From positions 66,787,897 to 66,851,896 of the forward strand of contig CP136063.1 of the NCBI GenBank assembly GCA_032622095.1: DNA of 64,000 nucleotides, written 5' to 3'. Made by a program: the position numbers and the translations under genes. The notes beneath the pieces were generated by a model. That model had not been told where the DNA came from. It worked only from the letters and a program-made list of their open reading frames with translations, and did no database searches. Below are positions 12,101 to 63,603 of the stretch, piece after piece (position 1 is the stretch's first letter; every line of letters begins with the position of its first letter). The stretch is from Siphonodentalium dalli (taxonomy: Eukaryota; Mollusca; Scaphopoda; Gadilida; Siphonodentaliidae).

Positions 12101-14297
12101 GCCAGTGCATTATTACGCCACCTAGTGTGGTGTTTCTAGCATTTGTTTTTTTTATATCGCATGGAGTACAGGGCGAATGTATTCTTGGAGATTGTTTGTA
12201 CCTTACTCAATCGTACCGATATAATCACGTAGATGCCGAAATTGTAAAGTTAACGCCAGCGGTGTATAATACGTTTATGAAAATATGATAAATCCTATCG
12301 ATAGAGTCAGGACAGGCTCAAATTGTAAACTTAAAGTCACCGGTGTTATAATATGTTGTTGAAAATATAAATAATCTGATAGCCTGAAAATATTGTATAA
12401 CCTATTGGGAGCCCATAATAAATGGGAATAACCTATTGGGAGCCCCTGCATGTAGTGAACTGAATTGTGGGTATTTTATGGAGATTGTTTGTACCTTACT
12501 GAATCGTACCGATATAATCACGTAGATGCCGAAGTTGTAAAGTTAACGCCACTGGTGTATAATATGTTTATGATAAATCGTATCGATAGAGTGAGGACAG
12601 GCTCAAATTGTAAACTTAAAGTCGAAAATATAAATAATCTGATAGCCTGAAAATATTGTATAACCTGTTGGGAGCCCCTGGTGTAGTGAACTGAATTATG
12701 GGTAATTTTAATTGGAGTGCGCATGTCTGTTTTTTTTGTAGTAACGGCCATCTTTTATTTTCTGTAATTATGGTAAGAGTTTATGGTTTAATTTATTTAT
12801 TATTTAAGTTTGTTTCAATTTTTGAATGGTTTTATGTTAACCCGATAATTTGTATTTTGTAAAGAATAAAATTGTTTGAAGAAAAATGGCGAATTTCCAA
12901 ATTTCCGGCTTCGGATGCTGTTCTGAGTGTCAGCTCGATAGTGAGACTGAGACTGTGACGGTGTGAGTGACTGAGAGTCTCAAGTTAGTTTATTTACAGT
13001 TGTATTCCGAGTATTTTTTGTAGTCAAATATTAATGAAATACGCTTTGTTTATATATACTAATTTGCTTATTTATAGAAACGTGTAATATTAATTTGAAA
13101 GTTAATTCGATAGACTATTTGTTTTTAGTTGAAGATAAAACAAATTTGGAAAACAAATATTATAACCCATTGTGAGCCTCGTGAAGTGTATTGTGGGTAT
13201 TTTAATATAATTGCGCATGCGCAGTCTATATGCGTTCTTTTGGGGAAATTCGCTATTTTGGTTAAGTGAAACAATGGTATGAGTTCAATGTTTGTTTGTA
13301 TATAAGAAAGTATATTGAATTTTGGAGGCCGACAATTGTATCTATTTGAAGATTAAAAGTTGCTTGTGTGTATTTAGCTGTGCATGGTTCGTTAATTAGG
13401 CCAGCCTATTGTCATATTAGAACGTCTCCAATAACATACAACCTCTCTGCAGTTAACATTGTGAATTTGGCAACAGTCCAAGCAGGCCCTCTAATGGAGC
13501 ACTGTGAATTTGGCAACAGTCCAAGACACGTGGGGTATAATAACTGAACACCTGTGGCCAACTTGATCTCCAGAATGTTTTTAAGTGGAAGGGACAGTGT
13601 AGTGGGGTGGGGGTGGAAGTTAGATTTTGAGTGTGTATGATTCACAACTTTTGTAAAAAAAAGTTAATGCACATGTAGTTGGAAATTTCATACATTATTA
13701 CACTACAACATAAAGGTTAAAATACATGGTTACCATTGCCTGGTATCCCAACTAGTAATTATTGTCCCCATTATGATGGGGACGGGGATCGAATGATGGA
13801 GGTATTTTGAGGGGGTGGGAGTCACAACTGTTATAAAGAATTTTAACAGTTGGAAATTTCATACATGATTACACTAACTTTTTGTCCCCATTTATTTTAC
13901 TGCTGTCTTGTTTGTTACTGTATTCCTGATATGGAAATAATAAAGAGCATTTATTACGCCACCTGTGGTGTATCTAGCTGCTGAGATTTTGATATTGCGT
14001 GGTGGACAGGGCGAATGCATTGTGGGGCTTTTATTTATAGAGTTGGAAATTCCGTTTATTTAAAAGTCGGAACTACGCGACCAGTAGGCCAAGTCCAGTA
14101 AAACGGTTCGTTATAGGTGCTGGTTGTTATTGTTATTTTAACGGAATTCTGAGTTGGTCATTCGCGAAACCAATATATTTTATATTCTATAATTAAAACC
14201 GTGGGTATATAATATATGATCCTCTTTATGGATATTGTAGGAAGGTAAATTTAGCTAAAGCGGTGGGATATCTTGCAAGACAACACATTTCGGTTTG

Positions 14298-15003
14298 CGC
14301 TATAACTGCTCAATGTTTTAAGGTGTTACACAACGTCTGATAAAAAGAGTTCTATCGGGAATATTCACACTATTTTTTCAGAGAACATGCATAGAGTAAA
14401 CATAGTCCTATCGGACTATCGTAAAGTAGTTCCGTTTAATTCGGGATTAATTAACCCTCAGACTGCCGAAACTGCCGACAATAAATTCGCTTGTTCGTGT
14501 CCGCCGAAAATCAAACTTGCCTGTTTAGAGGTCCCATTTTCGTGGCTAATGGTGATAGAATCACAATTTTTCAGTCAAGTTTATGGATAAATTACATTAC
14601 ACTTAATCGGCTTATGTCCGCGGCCATAAACCTGCGTTTTGATAACAATTTATTTGAGACAAACTGTTGCGCGGGTATCAGTCGGCGCTTATCGGTTGAA
14701 GTTATTATGATCGTGCAGCCTGCGCGTGCAACAAGTGTTCAAATACAACAGAAGAAAAAAATACTATGTCAAATAAATAACGTCATCAATGGACAGACAA
14801 GTTTCATTTCCGCGGGACACGAAAAAGCGAATTTAATGTCGTCAGTTTCGGCAGTCTGAGGGGTTTAATTAATCTCCTTTACGATATCCCGATAGGACTA
14901 TATTTACACTATGTTCTCTGAAAAAAAATGGTGTGAATATTCCCGATAGAACTATTTTTATCAGACGTTTTGTAACACATTAAAACATTGAGCAGTTAGC
15001 GCA
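14298..15003. mobile_element. Inverted-repeat element inside the left arm (mirrored at 16,066-16,773)
   Basis: Ends TGCTCAATGTTTTAA...GATAGAACT are inverted about 150-200 bp deep. The interior carries a 122-codon frame (MFVSAENQTCLFRGPIFVAN...) with no recognised domain. It is present in both arms, so it inserted before the arms were copied. Confidence 0.6.
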
Positions 15004-17535
15004 ATTTTCTGGAATTTCGGACTATTTCGTCTATAAAAATACGATGAGCAACTGAAAATGTTTTTCAACATTCTGGAAGGGGTAGATGTCCAGGTATATA
15101 TGTTTAAAATTTCACGCATAAACTATGACAGATAACAAAGTTATAATTAGTTTTATAGGCCCACCATAAATCCCCTATAATAAACGCATGCCTCCGTAAG
15201 CACATGGCTTTGCTGTGGATGCTTTCGTTCCCAGCATGCATCATTCTCGCTATCTGTAAAATGTCTATGAACAATGGCTGTGCCACGCACTCTTAGCTTT
15301 GATCCGCATTTAGAAGCATTCTGGTGTGGCGAATGAGAAACCTGCAGTAATTTATAAGCCGTAGTTCATTGTAATAATTTGAAGAATTACTTATCTTAAC
15401 GGAATTATGAGGCGGTCCATTCATGTAACCAATATATTTTATATTATGATTTATATTTTATGGCTAATAATACGATCTTGGTGGCGTTACCATTTCTGAC
15501 TATGGTTTTCTTGTCTTATATATGCGAGTGTCCCATAGGGAGCCTCACCTACATTATACAAGAAAACCATAGTCAGAAATGGTAACGCCACCAAGATCGT
15601 ATTATTAGCCATAAATATAAATCATAATATAAAATATATTGGTTACATGAATGGACCGCCTCAGAATTCCGTTAAGATAAGTAATTCTTCAAATTATTAC
15701 AATGAACTACGGCTTATAAATTACTGCAGGTTTCTCATTCGCCACACCAGAATGCTTCTAAATGCGGATCAAAGCTAAGAGTGCGTGGCACAGCCATTGT
15801 TCATAGACATTTTACAGATAGCGAGAATGATGCATGCTGGGAACGAAAGCATCCACAACAAAGCCATGTGCTTACGGGGGCATGCGTTTATTATAGGGGA
15901 TTTATGGTGGGCCTATAAAACTAATTATAACTTTGTTATCTGTCATAGTTTATGCGTGAAATTTTAAACATATATACCTGGACATCTACCCCTTCCAGAA
16001 TGTTGAAAAACATTTTCAGTTGCTCATCGTATTTTTATAGACGAAATAGTCCGAAATTCCAGAAAATTGCGCTAACTGCTCAATGTTTTAATGTGTTACA
16101 AAACGTCTGATAAAAATAGTTCTATCGGGAATATTCACACCATTTTTTTCAGAGAACATAGTGTAAATATAGTCCTATCGGGATATCGTAAAGGAGATTA
16201 ATTAAACCCCTCAGACTGCCGAAACTGACGACATTAAATTCGCTTTTTCGTGTCCCGCGGAAATGAAACTTGTCTGTCCATTGATGACGTTATTTATTTG
16301 ACATAGTATTTTTTTCTTCTGTTGTATTTGAACACTTGTTGCACGCGCAGGCTGCACGATCATAATAACTTCAACCGATAAGCGCCGACTGATACCCGCG
16401 CAACAGTTTGTCTCAAATAAATTGTTATCAAAACGCAGGTTTATGGCCGCGGACATAAGCCGATTAAGTGTAATGTAATTTATCCATGAATTTGACTGAA
16501 AAATTGTGATTCTATCACCATTAGCCACGAAAATGGGACCTCTAAACAGGCAAGTTTGATTTTCGGCGGACACGAACAAGCGAATTTATTGTCGGCAGTT
16601 TCGGCAGTCTGAGGGTTAATTAATCCCGAATTAAACGGAACTACTTTACGATAGTCCGATAGGACTATGTTTACTCTATGCATGTTCTCTGAAAAAATAG
16701 TGTGAATATTCCCGATAGAACTCTTTTTATCAGACGTTGTGTAACACCTTAAAACATTGAGCGGTTATAGCGCAAACCGAAATGTGTTGTCTTGCAAGAT
16801 ATCCCACCGCTTTAGCTAAATTTACCTTCCTACAATATCCATAAAGAGGATCATATATTATATACCCACGGTTTTAATTATAGAATATAAAATATATTGG
16901 TTTCGCGAATGACCAACTCAGAATTCCGTTAAAATAACAATAACAACCAGCACCTATAACGAACCGTTTTACTGGACTTGGCCTACTGGTCGCGTAGTTC
17001 CGACTTTTAAATAAACGGAATTTCCAACTCTATAAATAAAAGCCCCACAATGCATTCGCCCTGTCCACCACGCAATATCAAAATCTCAGCAGCTAGATAC
17101 ACCACAGGTGGCGTAATAAATGCTCTTTATTATTTCCATATCAGGAATACAGTAACAAACAAGACAGCAGTAAAATAAATGGGGACAAAAAGTTAGTGTA
17201 ATCATGTATGAAATTTCCAACTGTTAAAATTCTTTATAACAGTTGTGACTCCCACCCCCTCAAAATACCTCCATCATTCGATCCCCGTCCCCATCATAAT
17301 GGGGACAATAATTACTAGTTGGGATACCAGGCAATGGTAACCATGTATTTTAACCTTTATGTTGTAGTGTAATAATGTATGAAATTTCCAACTACATGTG
17401 CATTAACTTTTTTTTACAAAAGTTGTGAATCATACACACTCAAAATCTAACTTCCACCCCCACCCCACTACACTGTCCCTTCCACTTAAAAACATTCTGG
17501 AGATCAAGTTGGCCACAGGTGTTCAGTTATTTTAT

Positions 17536-18459
17536 ACCATGACTCCCTATTGTACTGTGTACAAACATGCTATATAATATATTTGTGCTGTACACCCTAC
17601 TGTGTGTGAACAGGAGTCCGACCGTGGGTAACACGTTTCTACTGTGGGTAACACGTTTTAATGGCATTTCAATGGTTAAAGTTTATACCCATAGTAGAAC
17701 TACATCCGAGTTGACCTTTCATTAACCTTCCATGACCTCGATCAAAATCACTCTATTTTTAAAATGTAGCGCCTCGCGATGAAAACAATTTGATACTTTC
17801 GATTCAATTGAATATTATACTCACTAATGCGATAAAAACGAACAGTTATTTCCGTGGAAATCACATCCAGATCAACAAATTGAACATATATTTCAAGAAA
17901 TAGACGTAAAAAACTCGAACAACAAACGGTGGATTTCAAAATGACTTTCGTGGTTTCCTGTTCACTGTACGGCGGAGAAAAAAAAGTTCCCGCAATGTGT
18001 TATATTTATATTCATTAAATTCGTATTCCCATATATATATTCATGTTGTTTATTTATGGCGGTTTCATCATGATTACAGTTTATTGTGAATTGGCTACAA
18101 TGATACCATATTCGTACAATTGAATGTTGACCTAATTCAATGTATCAATACGCCTGATCAGCTGTGATAGTGTACGTCGATGTACGGCCAAGTGTGGGGA
18201 ACACAACGGGGATGATTGTGAATGGTGCGACAGAATCATCTTAATTTAAGTGGGTTTATTTCGATTTCATAGCAGTTGTTGCTCCTGTACCGGTCATGGT
18301 ATAAACAAAATACACACGTAGTGTTTCTGAATACCAAATTTACACCACTCGTGGGATTGATGATTTACCACACTCGCTAAAGCTCGTGTGGTAAACCATC
18401 AATCCCACTCGTGGTGTAAATTTGGTATTCAGAAACACTACGTGTGTATTCTATATATA
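17536..18459. mobile_element. One-sided insertion in the right palindrome arm
   Basis: This roughly 920-bp block interrupts the arm between GTTCAGTTAT and TACCCCACGTG, which are contiguous in the left arm near 13,530. It has inverted words ATACCATGAC / GTCATGGTAT at 17,536 and 18,292 and a palindrome at 18,326-18,445 (ACACTACGTGTG region). No gene recognised. Confidence 0.6.
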
Positions 18460-19499
18460 CCCCACGTGTCTTGGACTGTTGCCAAATTCACAGTGCTCCA
18501 TTAGAGGGCCTGCTTGGACTGTTGCCAAATTCACAATGTTAACTGCAGAGAGGTTGTATGTTATTGGAGACGTTCTAATATGACAATAGGCTGGCCTAAT
18601 TAACGAACCATGCACAGCTAAATACACACAAGCAACTTTTAATCTTCAAATAGATACAATTGTCGGCCTCCAAAATTCAATATACTTTCTTATATACAAA
18701 CAAACATTGAACTCATACCATTGTTTCACTTAACCAAAATAGCGAATTTCCCCAAAAGAACGCATATAGACTGCGCATGCAGAAAATAAAAGATGGCCGT
18801 TACTACAAAAAAAACAGACATGCGCACTCCAATTAAAATTACCCATAATTCAGTTCACTACACCAGGGGGCTCCCAACAGGTTATACAATGTTTTCAGGC
18901 TATCAGATTATTTATATTTTCGACTTTAAGTTTACAATTTGAGCCTGTCCTCACTCTATCGATACGATTTATCATAAACATATTATACACCAGTGGCGTT
19001 AACTTTACAACTTCGGCATCTACGTGATTATATCGGTACGATTCAGTAAGGTACAAACAATCTCCATAAAATACAGAAGGGGCTCCCAATAGGTTATTCC
19101 CATTTATTATGGGCTCCCAATAGGTTATACAATATTTTCAGGCTATCAGATTATTTATATTTTCAACAACATATTATTACACCGGTGACTTTAAGTTTAC
19201 AATTTGAGCCTGTCCTGACTCTATCGATAGGATTTATCATATTTTCATAAACGTATTATACACCGCTGGCGTTAACTTTACAATTTCGGCATCTACGTGA
19301 TTATATCGGTACGATTGAGTAAGGTACAAACAATCTCCAAGAATACATTCGCCCTGTACTCCATGCGATATAAAAAAACCAAATGCAAGTAACACCACAC
19401 TAGGTGGCGTAATAAGAGAATGCACTGGCTTACAAGGCCAATGTAAATACTGTTAGGCCAATGCATTACAAGAAAACTAAGATGCATGCATCAGGTCGG

Positions 19500-41773: not shown

Positions 41774-42564
41774 TTGTCCCATCAAGCATGTTTTAATATC
41801 GACAGAAATTTTAGGCGTAATCATTTGTCTGCACTTTAGCTTCTTCGTACAATTGTCATTGAGTTATGCCAAGGCTTTGCACACACAAAACACTCAATTT
41901 TACCAATTTTTTTACTCAAATTGGCCATTTTAAATCCAAAAACAGACCATGATAGAGCGAATTTCAGTAAATAAGCTTCTTCCACCTGATAGAGCTATGT
42001 TAGAGCTGAGAAATATTTGAAATAGAAAAAAAGTTATCGTATCAATTTGAAAAAAATGTCTTGCGAGCCCAGATGACAGAATTCAGGGGAGAGAAATCGG
42101 GCTATTTTCCTGTAATCAATAACACAGAGTTGGCCTTCACTGAATACGAAAACCCTGTTGCGTATCCAAATTTTTCACTTTTTTGAGAACTTTCCCAGTT
42201 TTGTAAAATAAATAAACTTTCAAACCAGTAATGACACAGTTAACACAGGCTAACTGGCTGTTATGCCCCCCTCCCCCCCCCCCCCCCCAGATACTTATTT
42301 TTCTATTTTTCAGACCCCCTACAACCCGTGAAATCGTGTACTGCTACCTTACATTACAAATATACCCTTACACCATTTGCAACTCATTCATTAAAAGATT
42401 CTTGATTAAAGATGCGAGTTTAAAGATGCGCATTGTGTTCTGTCTGTATCTTCATGTTCTTCTACTGATGATGTTTTTGCAGACTTTCATGTTTTTTGCA
42501 CATTTACCCCTCTTGCCTCGACTGCAAGTGCCTTGGGTTCCTTTAAAAGTACATAAAAACTTAC

Positions 42565-42667
42565 CATTCTCATAGTAATCATATACTTTAACATAAGCCG
42601 GCTTTACATCTTCTACTTCCAATGTTTGTTCTACATCAAAGTAAAAGCATCTACCAATGGCATCAAA
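42565..42667 (-). CDS. Exon 12: end of receptor-binding domain (KVYDYYE)
   Basis: 103 nt, acceptor TTTTTTCAG, donor G|GTAAGT, phase 0 to 1. It encodes FDAIGRCFYFDVEQTLEVED then [14 protein letters not shown]. This matches A2M [26 protein letters not shown]. In most A2M proteins the chain ends about 15-20 residues later; here the next exon, 6 kb away, continues in phase. Confidence 0.95.
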
Positions 42668-43451: not shown

Positions 43452-43526
43452 TTCATCAAAGTAGAACGCTACAAAGTTATTCTCGACCTCGTATTTCTGG
43501 AGGTCAAGTGTCGGGTGTTCCTTCAG
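43452..43526 (-). CDS. Exon 11: receptor-binding domain
   Basis: A small 75-nt exon (25 codons), acceptor TTTTATTCCAG and perfect donor GAA|GTAAGT, phase 0 to 0. Sequence LKEHPTLDLQKYEVENNFV then AFYFDE. It occupies the place of the A2M stretch with V-R-E and H-VLIYLD, ending in a strand rich in aromatic residues. Confidence 0.88.
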
Positions 43527-44590: not shown

Positions 44591-44681
44591 TTTCCTCAAT
44601 GTCGACTTAATTGGTATCCAACCAGATACCATCTTGACCTCTACTATAGCCATGTTAGATATACCATCTTTTCCCATATAC
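44591..44681 (-). CDS. Exon 10: receptor-binding domain, core strands
   Basis: 91 nt, acceptor TTACTTCCAG, donor AAA|GTGAGT, phase 2 to 0. It encodes YMGKDGISNMAIVEVKMVSG then WIPIKSTLRK. SNMAIVEVKMVSG-IP-K is almost identical to A2M ([20 protein letters not shown]), a signature of the receptor-binding domain. A family C MITE is inserted 38 bp upstream of the acceptor. Confidence 0.95.
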
Positions 44682-46982: not shown

Positions 46983-47107
46983 CTTGTACACACTTTAATT
47001 GAGCGTTGTGCGCAGTCATTCACATCATGTTGGGCGCGATATACGTTAACTTCTGTTTCAAATGCTGGCTCTGTCTCCTTATTGGGAATATTATAGCGGA
47101 CTGTGGC
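46983..47107 (-). CDS. Exon 9: CUB to receptor-binding domain link
   Basis: 125 nt, acceptor ACATTTTCAG, donor AG|GTTAGT, phase 0 to 2. Translation ATVRYNIPNKETEPAFETEV then NVYRAQHDVNDCAQRSIKVC. It corresponds to A2M LKYNILPEKEEFPFALGV..., where the chain leaves the thioester domain for the C-terminal receptor-binding (MG8) domain. The two cysteines sit near the A2M TCDEPK region. The split codon AG|G gives Arg with exon 10. Confidence 0.93.
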
Positions 47108-49823: not shown

Positions 49824-50029
49824 CTGTGTTGATCTGAATCCACCAAATGAACTTCTCTGTTTGGTTAGCCACAACACATAGCTCCGCCCATCAATAATTA
49901 TGGTCGATGGGTTCATCACCGCCAGCAGAGCGTAGGCCGTCATCTCTATCTCGGCAGATGGGGCCTGGTACCAGAAGTGACTGTGGGTCTTCTCCGTTAC
50001 AGATTTATCTGGGACATGCCTTTGTCCAT
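49824..50029 (-). CDS. Exon 7: thioester domain
   Basis: 206 nt, acceptor TTGTCCAG, donor CAG|GTTAGC, phase 1 to 0. It encodes [20 protein letters not shown], then a loop and [34 protein letters not shown] and WLTKQ....GGF-STQ are invariant landmarks of the A2M thioester domain, here in the expected order and spacing. The next exon starts DTVLGLQAL, completing the conserved STQDT. Confidence 0.95.
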
Positions 50030-51464: not shown

Positions 51465-51510
51465 CTAACAAATAGAAAATATTAACCCTATATTATGACA
51501 CCAAATATAT

Positions 51511-52101
51511 CATACTCACCGACGGATGGAGCCGATTTCTATATAACAAGCAGCCATATTATCTGAACATTTCATACTCACCGACGGATGGAGCCGATTT
51601 CTATATAACAAGCAGCCATATTATCTGAACATTTCATACTCACCGATGAATGGAGCCGATTTCTATATAACAAGCAGCCATATAATCTGAACATTTCATA
51701 CTCACCGACGGATGGAGCCGATTTCTATATAACAAGCAGCCATATTATCGGAACATTTCATACTCACCGACGGATGGAGCCGATTTCTATATAACAAGCA
51801 GCCATATTATCGGAACATTTCATACTCACCGACGGATGGAGCCGATTTATATATAACAAGCAGCCATATTATCGGAACATTTCATACTCACCGACGGATG
51901 GAGCCGATTTCTATATAACAAGCAGCCATATTATCTGAACATTTCATACTCACCGACGGATGGAGCCGATTTCTATATAACAAGCAGCCATATTATCGGA
52001 ACATTTCATACTCACCGACGGATGGAGCCGATTTCTATATAACAAGCAGCCATATTATCGGAACATTTCATACTCACCGACGGATGGAGCCGATTTCTAT
52101 A
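51511..52101. repeat. 62-bp tandem array, nine full units plus a partial
   Basis: Unit starts CATACTCACCGACGGATGGA; starts fall every 62 bp from 51,511 to 52,069. On the gene strand each unit carries TCG|GTGAGTATG, a strong splice-donor match. Confidence 0.9.
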
Positions 52102-54235: not shown

Positions 54236-54412
54236 CTATTTTCATATATTCGATCGCCTTCGCCTCGAAAGATTGCGTAAGTTGCTTGGTGCTTTCAAGA
54301 TACTTCAGAACAAAGATATTGGGAACAAATTTCATCATATTCTGTTCCCCGCATCCGGTGGGCATACGTAACAACTGGTCGATGTTATTCAGTGCCGGCC
54401 CCATTATATCTC
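54236..54412 (-). CDS. Exon 4: thioester site (GCGEQ)
   Basis: The 177-nt exon encodes GDIMGPALNNIDQLLRMPTG followed by CGEQNMMKFVPNIFVLKYL and then an AKAIEYMKIG helix. GCGEQ is the intramolecular thioester between Cys and Gln. MPTGCGEQNM..FVPNI is closest in style to CD109/TEP proteins, while the rest of the domain is A2M-like. Acceptor is TTTTAG|GA, donor G|GTGAGT, phase 1 to 1. The next exon continues G-Y-Q-R-E-L-K-Y, as in all family members. A TTAA-flanked MITE pair lies 46 bp upstream of the acceptor. Confidence 0.95.
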
Positions 54413-56879: not shown

Positions 56880-57550
56880 TTAACTCTTCCATGACGGGAG
56901 CTTCCAGAAATTTCGCAAAAACCCTGTGCCAATGCATTCTCTTATATATGCGAGTCTCCCATAGAGAGCCTCGCATATATAAGAAAATACATTGGCCTAA
57001 TAATATTTACATTGACCTTGTAAGCCACTGCATTCTTTAACCCTTTCAGTGCCAGGTCCTATTTTTGTGTCAACTCATATACCCTGTGCCAATGCATTCT
57101 CTTATATATGCGAGTCGACCATAGGTCGCCTCGCATATATAAGAGAATGCATTGGCCTAACAATTTTTCATCATTTGTTATTATTTTTTACAATTTTAAT
57201 AATCTTTTCTTATATTCTTTAACAGACTTATTTTGTAGGTTTAGTGCCAGGGAATCTTACATTTTTCATGGGCATCAAAATTATTACTATGAATACTTGG
57301 TGATAGTTTTGAGTTATAACATGCTCCTAAGGTTTTATCCAGTTTTATTTTTAAATTCGCTATAGCATGCTTAAGCATACCCAAAACAAATTAAACCAAC
57401 AAAAAAAAAAATAATTCTAAAAAAAAAAAAAAAAAAAAAAATTTTAATTTTAGGGCCGATTTTACATACCGTAAATTAGGGCCGATAAGATCGGCCCCTG
57501 GCACTGAAAGGGTTAATGCTGAACCTGCGCAGCTCCCATCATAAAAGGGC
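56880..57550. mobile_element. A2 MITE interrupted by a second TTAA element (57,037-57,516)
   Basis: TTAACTCTTCCATGACGGGA start, remainder TGCTGAACCTGCGCAGCTCC after the inner element; part of the A2 hairpin was lost. The inner element is the longest A variant (GATCGGCCC ends) with a poly-A/T run at about 57,400-57,445. Confidence 0.65.
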
Positions 57551-57571: not shown

Positions 57572-57667
57572 CAATGACGGAGAAAAATCCTCTAGCTGAA
57601 TCAGGAATTATCTCGGATGGTAATTCCAAATCAAGGTTCTCAGTTATCATAGTAACGGGTGGTTCAA
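57572..57667 (-). CDS. Exon 3: start of CUB / pre-thioester segment
   Basis: The encoded segment VEPPVTM...ELPSEIIPDSAR-GFFSVIG matches the alpha-2-macroglobulin stretch VE...ELPPNVV..SAR..VSVLG just before the thioester domain. Here the proximal acceptor TTTCTTTCCAG is used; a duplicated copy 48 bp upstream offers a second in-frame start at 57,715. The donor G|GTAAGT leaves phase 1, and exon 4 completes GGA then D-I-M-G-P-A. In human A2M the corresponding exon also starts at VE, so the join to TB falls at a normal family exon boundary. The exon is short: the usual residues between VE and ELP are partly missing. Confidence 0.85.
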
Positions 57668-57715
57668 CTGGAAAGAAATCAAGGTTCTCAGTTAACATTG
57701 TAACAGGTGGTTCAA
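57668..57715 (-). CDS. Optional 48-nt extension of exon 3 from a duplicated acceptor
   Basis: A tandem duplication copied the polypyrimidine-AG acceptor together with the first 48 nt of the exon. The upstream copy reads VEPPVTMLTENLDFFP in frame (16 residues), followed by the proximal copy. Both acceptors are TTCTTTCCAG. Use of the distal site would add 16 residues without a frameshift. Which one is used cannot be told from DNA. Confidence 0.5.
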
Positions 57716-57736
57716 CTGGAAAGAAGACATGCAGAG

Positions 57737-58171
57737 CAAGCCTGTCATTTGCAGAATGAGGTCCCCAGAGGGTGAATTTAGTGATGCTATCCCGCATATT
57801 GGCTAGCATCACTAAATTCACCCTCTGGGGACCTTATTCTGCTTAGGCCTCATCTTCTCTGGAAAGTTTCTTTATTATCAAATTTCTATAGAAACTTCTT
57901 CACATAGATTCTATTTCTTTTTTAGTTTAGTTTCTCTATATCCCCAAATTGGCAGATGACACATTGCATAATCGAGGTTCCCAATGGGTGTACATCACAA
58001 TATTCACCATTTGGGAACTTAATTCTGAGTCTATGTCTCCCATAGCAGATGAAGCCATGCAGAATGAGGTGCCCAGAGGGTGAATTTAGTGATGCTAGCC
58101 CACTGTGCGGGATAGCGTCACTAAATTAACCCGCTGGGGGCCTTATTCTGCAAATGACAGGCACACTAAAC
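57737..58171. mobile_element. Family C MITE pair 21 bp upstream of exon 3 distal acceptor
   Basis: CAAGCCTGTC to CTCAGGCTTG; flanks ATGCAGAG and ATGCAGTG, a target duplication with one mismatch. Confidence 0.7.
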
Positions 58172-58454
58172 TCAGGCTTGATGCAGTGATGTAAAAATGG
58201 AAAAGAAATAAGACATATATAGAAATGTGATAAAAATATGCCTAAGCTTGATACGAGGTGAGAGACATCTCGATGTGTCATTCTGATCGATTCATGGCCA
58301 TTTTGATAATAAATCTTTATTTATTGATCAATATTTTTTTATATGAATTATGAGATATTTCTATAACCAGATAACCAGATGCAACTGATATGAGCATAAA
58401 CAAATATCCATATGTGCTGGCCGCATATTACTGTCAGTATCTGTTCAAATTATT

Positions 58455-58663
58455 TACAGTAATGCCCTAAATAATCGACTTCTTAACCACAGCAGAATTA
58501 TGGGTAATTTTTCAGGATTTAGTCGGAAATATGGATTGTTGCCATTCATCGAACAGTGAGAGCTTTCCGATGAATGGCAACAAGCCATATTTCCAACTAA
58601 ATCCTGAAAAATACCCATAATTCTGCTATGGTTAAGGAGTCGATTATTTAGGGCATTACTGTA
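58455..58663. mobile_element. Family B MITE
   Basis: TACAGTAATGCCC to GGGCATTACTGTA, shortened centre. Confidence 0.75.
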
Positions 58664-59058
58664 CATGGAAAAAAGTAAGAAAATGGTCAGGTGTTTCAAT
58701 ACCAAACGGACTGAAACTCAATACAATGACAGAGAAATTTCGCCTTGGTTTATATGAAATATTTATTAAACTGATTTGAGAACTCAAAATAGTGTGCTCG
58801 AATGTTAAACTTGGCACTCAGTGCTAGAATTATATAATCACATCCATGGTTATCTGAAATTAAAAATAAAGTCCTGCCTCCATCATTGATTCAGAAAAAA
58901 AAATGACTTAGTATATACATGTAAATATAAGTAAAAACAGCGGATTCAACATGGTCATGGGTTATTTCTCGCGTCCAAAATCTGATAACCACATTGAACC
59001 GCAGTTCATTTCTTATATAAAACATCAATCATTCTGCAGCAATACCTATGTTACATAC

Positions 59059-59277
59059 CTTCTCCAAAAACTGCAACAGGTTCAGTGCATAGCTTTTCAT
59101 AATCAGGAGTATTTTCTGATGGGCATAGATCGCAGTTTTCTCCCCATGCCTTTCCCGGATTTCCATCTAAATGCCCTATGCAGCAACAATCAGATTTTAT
59201 AAGACCTGTCCCATTATAGTCATGGCAATTTCCTTCATCGAAATGCATGTTTTCCATAAAGCATAACTCGCGTTTTT
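59059..59277 (-). CDS. Exon 2: TB (TGF-beta-binding-protein-like) 8-cysteine module
   Basis: The 219-nt exon has acceptor TTGATTTCAG and donor G|GTATGT, phase 1 to phase 1. It encodes about 73 residues with eight cysteines, including the diagnostic triple Cys (SDCCC), an AWG motif, then GENC, CDLCP and EKLC. These are hallmarks of the TB fold of fibrillins and LTBPs, an extracellular-matrix module. It starts E-K-R-E-L-C right after the cbEGF, the spacing seen in fibrillin-like proteins. It ends ...VFGE and can splice in phase to exon 3 (V-E-P-P-V). No TB domain is known to me in the alpha-2-macroglobulin family, so this is either a true chimera or the last exon seen of a neighbouring fibrillin-like gene. 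Confidence 0.85.
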
Positions 59278-59364
59278 CTGAAATCAACAAAAAAAATGGA
59301 AATGTTAAGTCTGAAAAATTGCCATTGTTTTTCAATCAGGAAATAAATGTGCACACCAACGTTA

Positions 59365-59518
59365 TACAGTAATGCCCTAAATAATCGACTCATCAACCAC
59401 AGCAAAATTCAGTGAGGGCTTTTCGATGAATGGCAGCAAGCCATATTTCCAACTAAATCCTGAAAAATTACCCATAATTCTGCTGTGGTTAAGGAGCAGA
59501 TTATTTAGGGCATTACTA
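59365..59518. mobile_element. Family B MITE with deleted left stem
   Basis: Left arm keeps only the terminal about 45 bp; right arm complete. Confidence 0.65.
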
Positions 59519-60129
59519 GACTGTACTGTATGATAAGCAGAGTTTGCGCTTGCCAAATTTGCCAATGACAAAAATAGTTTCATTTGGCAAAAAAAAAAAT
59601 TAATTTGGCACGAATTTCGGCAAGTAGATTTTCCAACTATATGTGCCGACTTACTGCACATAGGGAATACAATACAAAGGGAAACCTGAACAACAAATCT
59701 ATCAACCTAGTGGTCAGCAGTGATTTGTCGAAAGTGATACAAATGTATGTAATCTTCTATATTATAGTTTACATAAACATATATTACACAAGCTTAATGC
59801 AGTATAATTGTTTCGGCTTCCATCAATAAAAGTGAAGTATGTTGAAACATTGGTGCATTATTGAACGTCAACATGTCAAATGAGAAGCATGTAAACAATC
59901 TGAGGAATGTTCGAAGGATTTGAAAGTATTTAATTAATACTGTCAGCAACGAAATCAATCATTCAATCTTTAGTCAGCAGTAAGTTGGATATATGAATGG
60001 ATATTTATTCAAAATTTATACTGACACATCGAGGAGAAAACTGTAAACGGTTCAGACACCTGCTGCAAGTGAGCACAGAAATTAATCTGGTGATGTGTGA
60101 TTTACATTGGCTAACTGTCCGTTACCGAA

Positions 60130-60584
60130 TTAACCCTTTACCCCAAAAAACGGCCATAAACGCCCAAATAAAGCTTCAACAGCCTAAAATATCTTTGGTC
60201 TGTCTCAATAACACCATACAAATATGGATATCATAGGAACCGGTTCATTGACCACATTGTGATGGTTACAGTTATGCCCTGTGCCAATGCATTCTCTTAT
60301 ATATGCGAGTCGACCATAGGTCGCCTCGCATATATAAGAGAATGCATTGGCCTAAAAAAACACTTTTTACCATTTTTTCTTGCATTCTTTAACAATTTTT
60401 GAATTTTTTCTTACATTTATAAACAATTTTTATAATATTTTTCTACATTCTTTGACAATTTTATCATTTTTAATATGTGTTAAGCCAATGCATTCTCTTA
60501 TATATGCGAGGCGACCTATGGTCGACTCGCATATATAAGAGAATGCATTGGCACAGGGCCGTTCTGTTGGGTAAAGGGTTAAAT
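60130..60584. mobile_element. Family A (TTAA) element, complete, two hairpins
   Basis: TTAACCCTTTACCCCAAAAA to GTTGGGTAAAGGGTTAA. Confidence 0.75.
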
Positions 60585-60882
60585 TCAAAATACTTCTACT
60601 GACATTTCGAGCTCTCGATGGAACAGCTAGTGCCTGTTTATATCCAGGAGTTGGTGAGCTTTAACCGACAAGGCCATAATATGCAGAAAAATCATGATGG
60701 GGAAAAATCTTCTCTCACTTTTGAAATCTGACCATCCTACTTTAGGAGACCAGAGCCTTTCACATCACTAACTCTAACAGTCTTCCGGACTAACTGAGGT
60801 TATCATGCATCCCTTTAGAATTCCCGAAACTTTTGAACAAATTGCGTACAGATCGACTCACATGAATAACTGTTTTACTGTA

Positions 60883-61348
60883 TTAACCCTTTACCCAACA
60901 GAACTGCCCTGTGCCAATGCATTCTCTTATATATGCGAGTCGACCATAGGTCGCCTCGCATATATAAGAGAATGCATTGGCTTAACAAATATTAAAAATG
61001 ATAAAATTGTCGAAGAATGTAGGAAAATATTATAAAAATTGTTAAAAAATGTAAGAAAAAATTATAAAATTGTTAAAGAATGTAAGAAAATATGGTAAAA
61101 AGTGTTAAAAAAAAGAATTTTTTTAGGCTAATGCATTCTCTTATATATGTGAGGCGACCTATGGTCGACTCGCATATATAAGAGAATGCATTGGCACAGG
61201 GCATAACTGTAACCATCACAATGTGGTCAATGAACCGGTTCCAATGATATCCATATTTGTGTGGTGTTATTGAGACAGACCGAAGATATTTTAGGCTGTT
61301 GAAGCTATATTTGGGCGTTTTTGGCCGTTTTGTTTGGTAAAGGGTTAA
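60883..61348. mobile_element. Family A (TTAA) element, complete, two hairpins
   Basis: TTAACCCTTTACCCAACAGA to TTTGGTAAAGGGTTAA, inverse orientation to the copy at 60,130. Confidence 0.75.
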
Positions 61349-61860
61349 TGGAGCTACTAATTGAACCTACCTTTGTTATAAAGCGCCTATGAACACAATA
61401 ACCTGCACTTTGAAGGATGGACGGATGAAGGTTTCACACTATACACCCCCCTGAATTCTCAATTCACAAATTTCCAAGTCAAACAAGGGCCATGGATGAA
61501 GTCCGCAGTATGTGGATATCATTTCCCCCAATCTGTGTTATCACCAAAGAACAATGGACAATGAAATCCAACAATAAAGACATCCACAACATAATGTTTG
61601 TTATGGACGTGTTTTACAGCAAATGATCATAACTCTGTGTGGACAAAACCTGCACTATGTGGAGATCCTTTCCACAATGCTGGTCTACCACATACCAAAG
61701 GACATCCAAATTGGACTATCGATAATTAAGCTGTGTTGTGAAATGTTTTTACGGATGGCGGGAGGACAGATGAAGGACTCCACTATATACCCCCGAATCC
61801 TGCTTCGGAGGGTCGGGGGCTTTATTATAATAATAAAATTATTATTAGAATTAAGTTTAC

Positions 61861-61986
61861 CATGACACGATTTTTGCTCTGGTCCTGACTCGTATCTGGC
61901 ATCACATTCACATCGGAAGCTTCCTTCAGTGTTCACACAACGACCGTTGCGACACAGATTCTCATTCTCCACACACTCATCTACAT
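61861..61986 (-). CDS. Exon 1 (in window): calcium-binding EGF-like module
   Basis: This 126-nt exon lies between an acceptor (TTGACAG) and a donor (G|GTAAAC) and is phase 1 at both ends, as usual for extracellular modules. It encodes about 42 residues beginning D-V-D-E-C with six cysteines in EGF order. The D-x-D-E, the Asn in CRNGRC and the N-T-x-G-S-F segment match the calcium-binding EGF consensus of fibrillins, including the expected hydroxylation-type Asn position. Its last cysteine is followed by His, and phase 1 joins it to exon 2 as ...KSC-H-E-KREL.... No earlier exon was recognised between here and the right edge. A family C MITE starts 28 bp upstream of the acceptor. Confidence 0.85.
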
Positions 61987-63386: not shown

Positions 63387-63603
63387 TACAGTAATGCCCT
63401 AAATAATCGACTCCTTAACCACAGCAGAATTATGGGTAATTTTTCAGGATTTAGTTGGAAATATGGCTTGTTGCCATTCATCGGAAAGGTCTCACTGAGA
63501 ACTTTCCGATGAATGGCAACAAGCCATATTTCCGACTAAATCCTGAAAAATTACCCATAATTCTGCTGTGGTTAAGGAGTCGATTATTTAGGGCATTACT
63601 GTA
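63387..63603. mobile_element. Family B MITE; a further copy starts at 63,991
   Basis: Textbook copy with both arms intact; the next TACAGTAATGC begins ten bases before the window end. Confidence 0.75.

What the first reader, a model, noticed from the sequence alone, without database searches (positions are those of the whole stretch)
57572..61986. Fibrillin-type cbEGF and TB modules spliced onto an alpha-2-macroglobulin thioester protein
Exons for a calcium-binding EGF and an eight-cysteine TB module lie directly upstream, on the same strand and in matching phase 1, of the exon that starts the CUB/thioester region. The join falls at the normal A2M exon boundary (VE...). No MG-domain exon is visible between them. 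I know of no TEP, CD109, A2M or complement protein with a TB domain. If real, it would be a matrix-anchored thioester protein.
Basis: partly seen in the sequence, partly recalled or inferred. Interest (0 to 1): 0.92.

Follow-up and report, generated by a model that had tools for sequence, protein, structure and literature searches.

The report
Fibrillin modules inside a macroglobulin gene
In this animal genome a gene for an alpha-2-macroglobulin-type protein (a protease trap) carries two small modules copied from the animal's own fibrillin-like gene (a connective-tissue fibre protein), placed inside the domain that moves when the trap springs, which could hold the trap in tissue matrix.

Summary
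The cbEGF and TB exons are real, at the stated places and in phase 1. They are not the start of a short fusion protein. Beyond the window's end the same strand continues with alpha-2-macroglobulin (A2M) exons (MG2, MG3, MG4, BRD, MG6/7), and a 52-nt exon directly upstream of the cbEGF encodes the first CUB strand. The fibrillin pair is therefore an insertion within CUB, two residues after the cysteine aligned with human A2M Cys921. Fifteen exons from MG7 to a stop read as one open frame (783 aa) with GT..AG introns. The pair was copied from the genome's own fibrillin-like gene: the best-matching cbEGF and TB there are neighbouring exons, also 126 and 219 nt long, and of nine TB domains compared only that one shares the longer loop. 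All 14 cysteines survive although synonymous sites are far diverged. A paralogue on C9 has a phase-1 intron in the same loop without a cassette; three other paralogues have this exon unsplit. TB domains are described as unique to fibrillins and LTBPs. Most likely: a protease trap with a matrix-binding, possibly splice-optional cassette beside the thioester domain. There is no transcript and no second species; matrix binding is inferred.

The parts
61861..61986 (-). cbEGF exon, 126 nt, phase 1-1, 6 cysteines; calcium-type start DVDEC
   Evidence: EGF_CA 42.9 bits; splice ends and frame; closest relative in the genome C3:277702410, 51%
59059..59277 (-). TB exon, 219 nt, phase 1-1, 8 cysteines
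   Evidence: TB 40.2 bits; PDB matches are fibrillin and LTBP1; closest relative C3:277700062, 40%
57572..57715 (-). Exon B: second part of the first CUB segment; a 48-bp tandem duplication gives two acceptors (57715 and 57667), both in frame
54236..54412 (-). Thioester-domain exon 1 with GCGEQN
   Evidence: TED_complement 74.3 bits
52517..52854 (-). Thioester-domain exon 2
   Evidence: TED_complement 111.8 bits
51296..51464 (-). Thioester-domain exon 3
49824..50029 (-). Thioester-domain exon 4
   Evidence: TED_complement 48.2 bits
48684..48896 (-). End of thioester domain and returning CUB strands (with the cysteine aligned to the GEGC cysteine of A2M)
46983..47107 (-). CUB/RBD linker exon, frame-fitting; no convincing Pfam match of its own
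44591..44681 (-). Receptor-binding domain exon 1
   Evidence: A2M_recep 23.6 bits on its ORF
43452..43526 (-). Receptor-binding domain exon 2
42452..42667 (-). Receptor-binding domain exon 3 with stop codon; an inner GT could also serve as a donor
   Evidence: A2M_recep 37.6 bits

Best explanation
The window holds the 3' half of an alpha-2-macroglobulin-type gene on the minus strand; its MG exons lie beyond the window's right end. A pair of neighbouring exons, one cbEGF and one TB module, was copied from the same genome's fibrillin-like gene into a phase-1 intron that splits the first CUB segment, and has been kept as coding sequence. The protein reads MG2-MG7, first CUB strand, cbEGF, TB, rest of CUB, thioester domain, CUB, receptor-binding domain. 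Shown: exons, phases, open frame, origin of the pair, coding constraint. Inferred: the protein works like an A2M protease trap (bait cleaved, CUB and thioester domain swing, protease captured), and the cbEGF-TB pair projects from CUB beside the thioester domain and binds matrix, most simply fibrillin-type microfibrils, so the trap stays in tissue. Both cassette exons are symmetric, so skipping them would give a plain A2M. My odds: in-frame insertion about 0.93; matrix retention as its role about 0.5; splice-optional use about 0.4. The confidence given is for the anatomy and origin.
For: Domains. Frame: 15 exons MG7b to stop, 14 GT..AG introns, one stop at the end. Exon A: first of 165 candidates in place, above all 6,043 control candidates. 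Human A2M aligns in two pieces, 759-922 and 927-1331 (6tav_A), with only the cassette and linkers left over, and in one piece when the cassette is left out. Origin: best TB and best cbEGF relatives are neighbouring fibrillin exons with the same lengths and phases; 11-residue CCC-WG loop shared with that TB and with none of 8 others. Constraint: 14 of 14 cysteines, pS 0.69, pN 0.36, 0 of 5,000 neutral runs keep frame and cysteines with half the distance on this branch. Site: phase-1 intron in the same loop without cassette on C9; unsplit exon in three paralogues.
Against: No transcript and no second species. Joining A directly to B is in frame too. MG1, signal peptide and some N-terminal exons were not located, and several MG exon matches are weak one by one. 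The TB tree is unresolved, 0 of 7 inner branches supported. Matrix binding, calcium binding and protease trapping are untested.
Confidence: 0.85

Rival explanations
1. The cbEGF and TB exons are cassette exons used rarely or in a minor tissue; the main product is an ordinary A2M made by joining exon A directly to exon B.
For: A-B is in frame and aligns with human A2M in one piece, domain score 424.7 bits with 7voo_A. Both cassette exons are 3n long, phase 1-1.
Against: Coding constraint on the cassette has been strong, which means regular use in some setting. Splice ends of both exons look ordinary.
Confidence: 0.35
2. The cassette acts at the hinge rather than in the matrix: placed where CUB and thioester domain dock after bait cleavage, it slows, speeds or blocks the conformational change, or alters oligomerisation, perhaps under calcium control.
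For: The insertion point follows the aligned CUB cysteine by two residues; PMC9156758 places a CUB cysteine pair and neighbouring residues in the CUB-thioester interface of cleaved A2ML1 (passages).
Against: Fibrillin-type cbEGF-TB pairs are known as structural and ligand-binding matrix modules (recalled), and no structure of the product was made.
Confidence: 0.3
3. The cassette exons are a separate small fibrillin-like gene or pseudogene nested in an A2M intron.
For: Only that no transcript is at hand.
Against: No other EGF or TB pattern on the minus strand of 174 kb; the exons fit the A2M frame on both sides; 14 of 14 cysteines kept.
Confidence: 0.03
4. Assembly artefact that joins two loci.
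For: The locus is rich in repeats, and other A2M-family loci appear twice in this assembly.
Against: No N in 174 kb; parts of one CUB domain lie on both sides in matching phases; the fibrillin-like gene keeps its own intact pair, only 40% (TB) and 51% (cbEGF) identical.
Confidence: 0.03

Closest known systems
Alpha-2-macroglobulin and A2ML1 (A2M family protease inhibitors)
   Same: MG, BRD, CUB, thioester (GCGEQN) and receptor-binding domains in the same order; human A2M and A2ML1 are the best PDB matches, ahead of CD109, TEP1 and C3-C5. Residue aligned with His1084 of A2ML1 is serine, as expected for an amine-reactive, inhibitor-type thioester (PMC7864068, passages).
   Different: About 115 residues of cbEGF and TB inserted in the first CUB segment; none of the aligned A2M-family chains shown has anything there.
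Fibrillins
   Same: The cbEGF-TB exon pair, its lengths, phases, cysteines and the long CCC-WG loop match one pair of the genome's own fibrillin-like gene.
   Different: One cbEGF and one TB only, inside a thioester protein.
[quoted passage not shown]
   Same: TB and cbEGF modules; LTBP1 chains match the TB exon.
   Different: Lacks the two extra residues between Cys6 and Cys7 that PMC3306419 calls critical for binding the latency peptide (passages; alignment with 1ksq).
Other A2M-family proteins with extra modules: MCR (LDL-receptor module), complement C3-C5 (ANATO, C345C), CPAMD8 (Kazal)
   Same: Precedent that the family takes up foreign modules (PMC7016707 and PMC9363628, passages).
   Different: The LDL module sits where the bait or anaphylatoxin region is; the C-terminal place of C345C and Kazal is recalled. 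None is described as TB or EGF in the passages seen, and none as lying in CUB.

Membership tests
A2M family (thioester proteins) | MG domain series | tested here: met
   MG2, MG3, MG4, BRD and A2M profiles over their cut-offs on joined exon translations; MG1 and signal peptide not located
A2M family (thioester proteins) | Thioester domain with GCGEQ, nested in CUB | tested here: met
   TED 195.6 and 103.3 bits; PTGCGEQNM in exon 54412-54236
A2M family (thioester proteins) | Receptor-binding domain | tested here: met
   A2M_recep 80.6 bits on joined exons
A2M protease inhibitors | Bait region cleaved by proteases, protease captured | not testable with these tools
   BRD matches; bait function needs an assay
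Complement C3/C4/C5 | ANATO and C-terminal C345C domains | tested here: inconclusive
   Neither appears in the Pfam scan of the exons found and a stop follows the RBD, but not every exon was found and no separate search for these two families was made
Fibrillins / LTBPs | Arrays of cbEGF with several TB domains | tested here: not met
   One EGF and one TB pattern on the minus strand of 174 kb
LTBPs | Two-residue insertion between Cys6 and Cys7 of the TB that binds the latency peptide | tested here: not met
   C-DL-C here; the alignment with LTBP1 1ksq shows a two-residue gap at that place (feature as stated in PMC3306419)
TB domain | Eight cysteines with a CCC triplet | tested here: met
Calcium-binding EGF | EGF_CA profile and acidic start before Cys1 | tested here: met
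   EGF_CA 42.9 bits, DVDEC; calcium binding itself untested

The most novel reading that the evidence does not exclude
A splice-switchable, matrix-tethered protease trap: exon shuffling put a fibrillin cbEGF-TB pair into the moving CUB domain of an A2M, so that matrix or calcium binding and the bait-triggered swing of the thioester domain are mechanically coupled, and skipping the symmetric cassette yields the soluble trap.
Probability: 0.3. Interest if true: 0.88.

Novelty: new variant of a known kind. Interest (0 to 1): 0.72.

Why it matters
TB domains have been described as unique to fibrillins and LTBPs (PMC3306419, passages). Here one sits inside a thioester protein, and donor exons, insertion site and a cassette-free paralogous intron can be pointed to in one genome: a clear case of exon shuffling between a matrix gene and a protease-control gene. 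If expressed, it makes a question testable: can an A2M-type trap be stationed in the matrix, or regulated, by modules placed at its hinge?

Tried and rejected
Looked for the organism's phylum with mollusc haemocyanin and annelid linker families: nothing rang anywhere, controls included, so nothing follows. A search for genome notes with nine pseudomolecules showed no genome of this size among the 25 listed. The TB tree was unresolved and is not used.

Considered and rejected: nested fibrillin-like gene; recent copy (only 40-51% identity); LTBP-type binding of the TGF-beta latency peptide. No scan of viral, metagenome or bacterial contig collections was made.

Literature searches: searches returned no paper; the others were seen as listings (15 of 131). 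No listing or passage seen describes a TB or EGF module in an A2M-family protein. This covers open-access papers only; protein databases, where unstudied predicted homologues may exist, could not be searched.

A correction made on re-checking: PMC9156758 prints the A2ML1 CUB cysteine pair as Cys916-Cys1307. Counting along 7q1y_A with His1084 and Cys1307 as fixed points, the cysteine aligned with ours would be 919, not 916; the paper has no 'Cys919'.
Full report
WHAT WAS READ. The window is C3:66787897-66851896 of a 2.23-Gb, nine-contig animal genome. The finding lies on the minus strand near the window's right end, so I read on: L001-L011 continue to C3:66961896. 'Extended' positions count on from window 64000 (extended x = C3:66787896+x). 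The 174 kb contain no N.

THE EXONS ARE REAL. The cbEGF ORF scores 42.9 bits against EGF_CA and the TB ORF 40.2 bits against TB, profile positions 2-44 of 44. In the PDB the TB exon matches four distinct sequences at E up to 1, all fibrillin or LTBP1; the cbEGF matches fibrillin-1 best. A genome-wide TB search found 12 places: this one and 11 at C3:277.60-277.72 Mb (150 of 419 candidates scored). With 21 of the 33 cbEGF matches at C3:277.58-277.72 Mb (150 of 978 candidates scored), I take that cluster as the genome's fibrillin-like gene; this name is my inference.

THE GENE CONTINUES UPSTREAM. Profiles for A2M_BRD, A2M and MG2 match on the same strand at C3:66884802, 66862724 and 66928724 (the MG2 match is below its cut-off on a single exon). 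A tblastn with recalled human A2M found further MG exons between extended 141 and 71.7 kb, several of them weak taken alone. Joined translations pass the Pfam cut-offs for MG2, MG3, MG4, BRD and A2M, and downstream for TED and A2M_recep. MG1, the signal peptide and some N-terminal exons were not located.

WHERE THE CASSETTE SITS. From MG7 to the thioester domain the exons are MG7b (71930-71781), X (67257-67159), A (64650-64599), cbEGF (61986-61861), TB (59277-59059), B (57715 or 57667 to 57572) and TED1 (54412-54236). Their ends are AG and GT and their phases fit; without exon A the frame is lost. From MG7b to the stop, 15 exons with 14 GT..AG introns give 783 aa in one frame. Exon A (AEGIEKEYTISSYVCNK) is short, so it was tested: among AG..GT stretches with the right phases between X and B it ranks first of 165 (26.0; next 10.75), none of 6,043 control stretches reaches it (best 16.5), and it is the only one of 139,871 open windows at that score (profile of human A2M, recalled, plus three paralogues of this genome). 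Human A2M (6tav_A) aligns with the product in two pieces, 759-922 and 927-1331, with only the cassette and its linkers left over; with the cassette left out 7voo_A aligns in one piece at 424.7 bits. The insertion is two residues after the cysteine aligned with Cys921; its pairing with Cys1321 in A2M is recalled. The partner cysteine (GYGC) is present. PMC9156758 describes a CUB cysteine pair, printed Cys916-Cys1307, with neighbouring residues in the CUB-thioester interface of cleaved A2ML1 (passages); by my count the aligned cysteine would be 919, so identity with the printed residue is an inference.

THE SITE WITHOUT CASSETTE. In three paralogues (C5, C4, C2) this stretch of CUB is one unbroken exon. 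In the A2M-family paralogue on C9 it is split by a phase-1 intron in the same loop (exons of 97 and 102 nt, intron 1,043 nt), for which neither the TB nor the cbEGF search reported a match (within their candidate limits). The simplest order is intron first, then the fibrillin pair entering it in the C3 gene. That the two introns are the same one is an inference, because the loop aligns poorly.

THE DONOR. Searched separately, the best relative of the TB exon is C3:277700062 (40%; 5 of 5 candidates scored, no other match at E 0.01) and that of the cbEGF exon C3:277702410 (51%, E 1.1e-9, next 1.1e-7). These are neighbouring exons on one strand, 2,129 nt apart, in the same order, 126 and 219 nt long, exactly as here. 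The TB shares with this donor an 11-residue CCC-WG loop, against 5-6 residues in the 8 other fibrillin TB-like domains compared (two partial, near-identical ones were left out), and the highest pairwise score, 98 against 56-78. In one search only these two matches run to the profile's last position. A tree of the 10 TB sequences is unresolved, 0 of 7 inner branches supported.

CONSTRAINT. Over 112 aligned codons (indel columns dropped) 47 residues are identical and 14 of 14 cysteines are shared; pS is 0.69 and pN 0.36. Mutating the fibrillin exons without selection, the frame stayed open in 54, 195 and 685 of 5,000 runs with all, half and a quarter of the distance on this branch, and frame plus all cysteines in 0, 0 and 1 (substitutions only, starting from today's fibrillin exons). 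The cassette has therefore been under coding selection for long. The only open, in-phase setting found for it is this gene.

HOW IT MOST LIKELY WORKS. Shown: anatomy, origin, constraint. From the family: after bait cleavage CUB and thioester domain rotate and the protease is held (PMC9156758, passages). The residue aligned with the hydroxyl-reactivity histidine of A2ML1 (His1084) is serine here (PMC7864068, passages), so an amine-reactive, inhibitor-type thioester is expected. Inferred: the cbEGF-TB pair leaves CUB next to the thioester domain and binds calcium and a matrix partner, most simply fibrillin microfibrils. LTBP-type binding of the latency peptide is unlikely, since the Cys6-Cys7 insertion is absent. 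The 48-bp duplication at the start of exon B offers a longer return linker in frame. Symmetric phases allow one or both modules to be skipped.

AGAINST THIS READING. There is no transcript and no second species. The A-to-B join is in frame. The role of the modules is not shown, and a regulatory role at the hinge is nearly as plausible as tethering.

RELATION TO KNOWN FAMILIES. By sequence and domain order it is a member of the A2M family; it is not a fibrillin or LTBP. [quoted passage not shown] The main texts of two snail thioester-protein papers hold no mention of EGF, TB domain or fibrillin (term counts and passages), and a 2026 A2M review none of EGF or fibrillin. Searches for the combination in open-access papers returned nothing.

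Noticed in passing
L002:1-865, continuing into the end of L001 (extended about 73860-74865): 45-bp minisatellite, 19.3 copies in L002, made from the end of the MG7a exon and its intron start; each unit carries a donor-like GTAAGG and a CAG, and the array reads in frame with the exon.
   Followed up: partly
57628-57725: 48-bp tandem duplication of the acceptor and first codons of exon B, giving two in-frame splice acceptors.
   Followed up: yes
12110-19415: Near-perfect inverted repeat (arm pieces 99-100% complementary, up to 1,397 nt each, 154 nt between the innermost arms): a foldback element, recent duplication or assembly fold.
   Followed up: no
51510-52101: 62-bp tandem array, 9.5 copies, in the intron between thioester exons 2 and 3.
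   Followed up: no
L003:95-2908 (extended 84095-86908): 938-aa open frame in an intron that looks like a non-LTR retrotransposon endonuclease/reverse transcriptase; judged by eye only.
   Followed up: no
L004:2858-3259 (extended 96858-97259): The BRD exon carries a charged insert with a furin-like RHKRSS, which might be cut in secretion.
   Followed up: no
C5:7.72 and 12.57 Mb; C2:225.67 and 225.98 Mb: A2M-family genes appear in pairs with near-identical scores, inverted on C5 and in tandem on C2: recent duplications or assembly duplicates.
   Followed up: no
introns, e.g. 57100-57160, 60480-60560, 63390-63600: Two families of short palindromic, MITE-like elements recur in the introns, one around GCCAATGCATTCTCTTATATATGCGAG, one around CAGTAATGCCCTAAATAATCGACTCC.
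   Followed up: no
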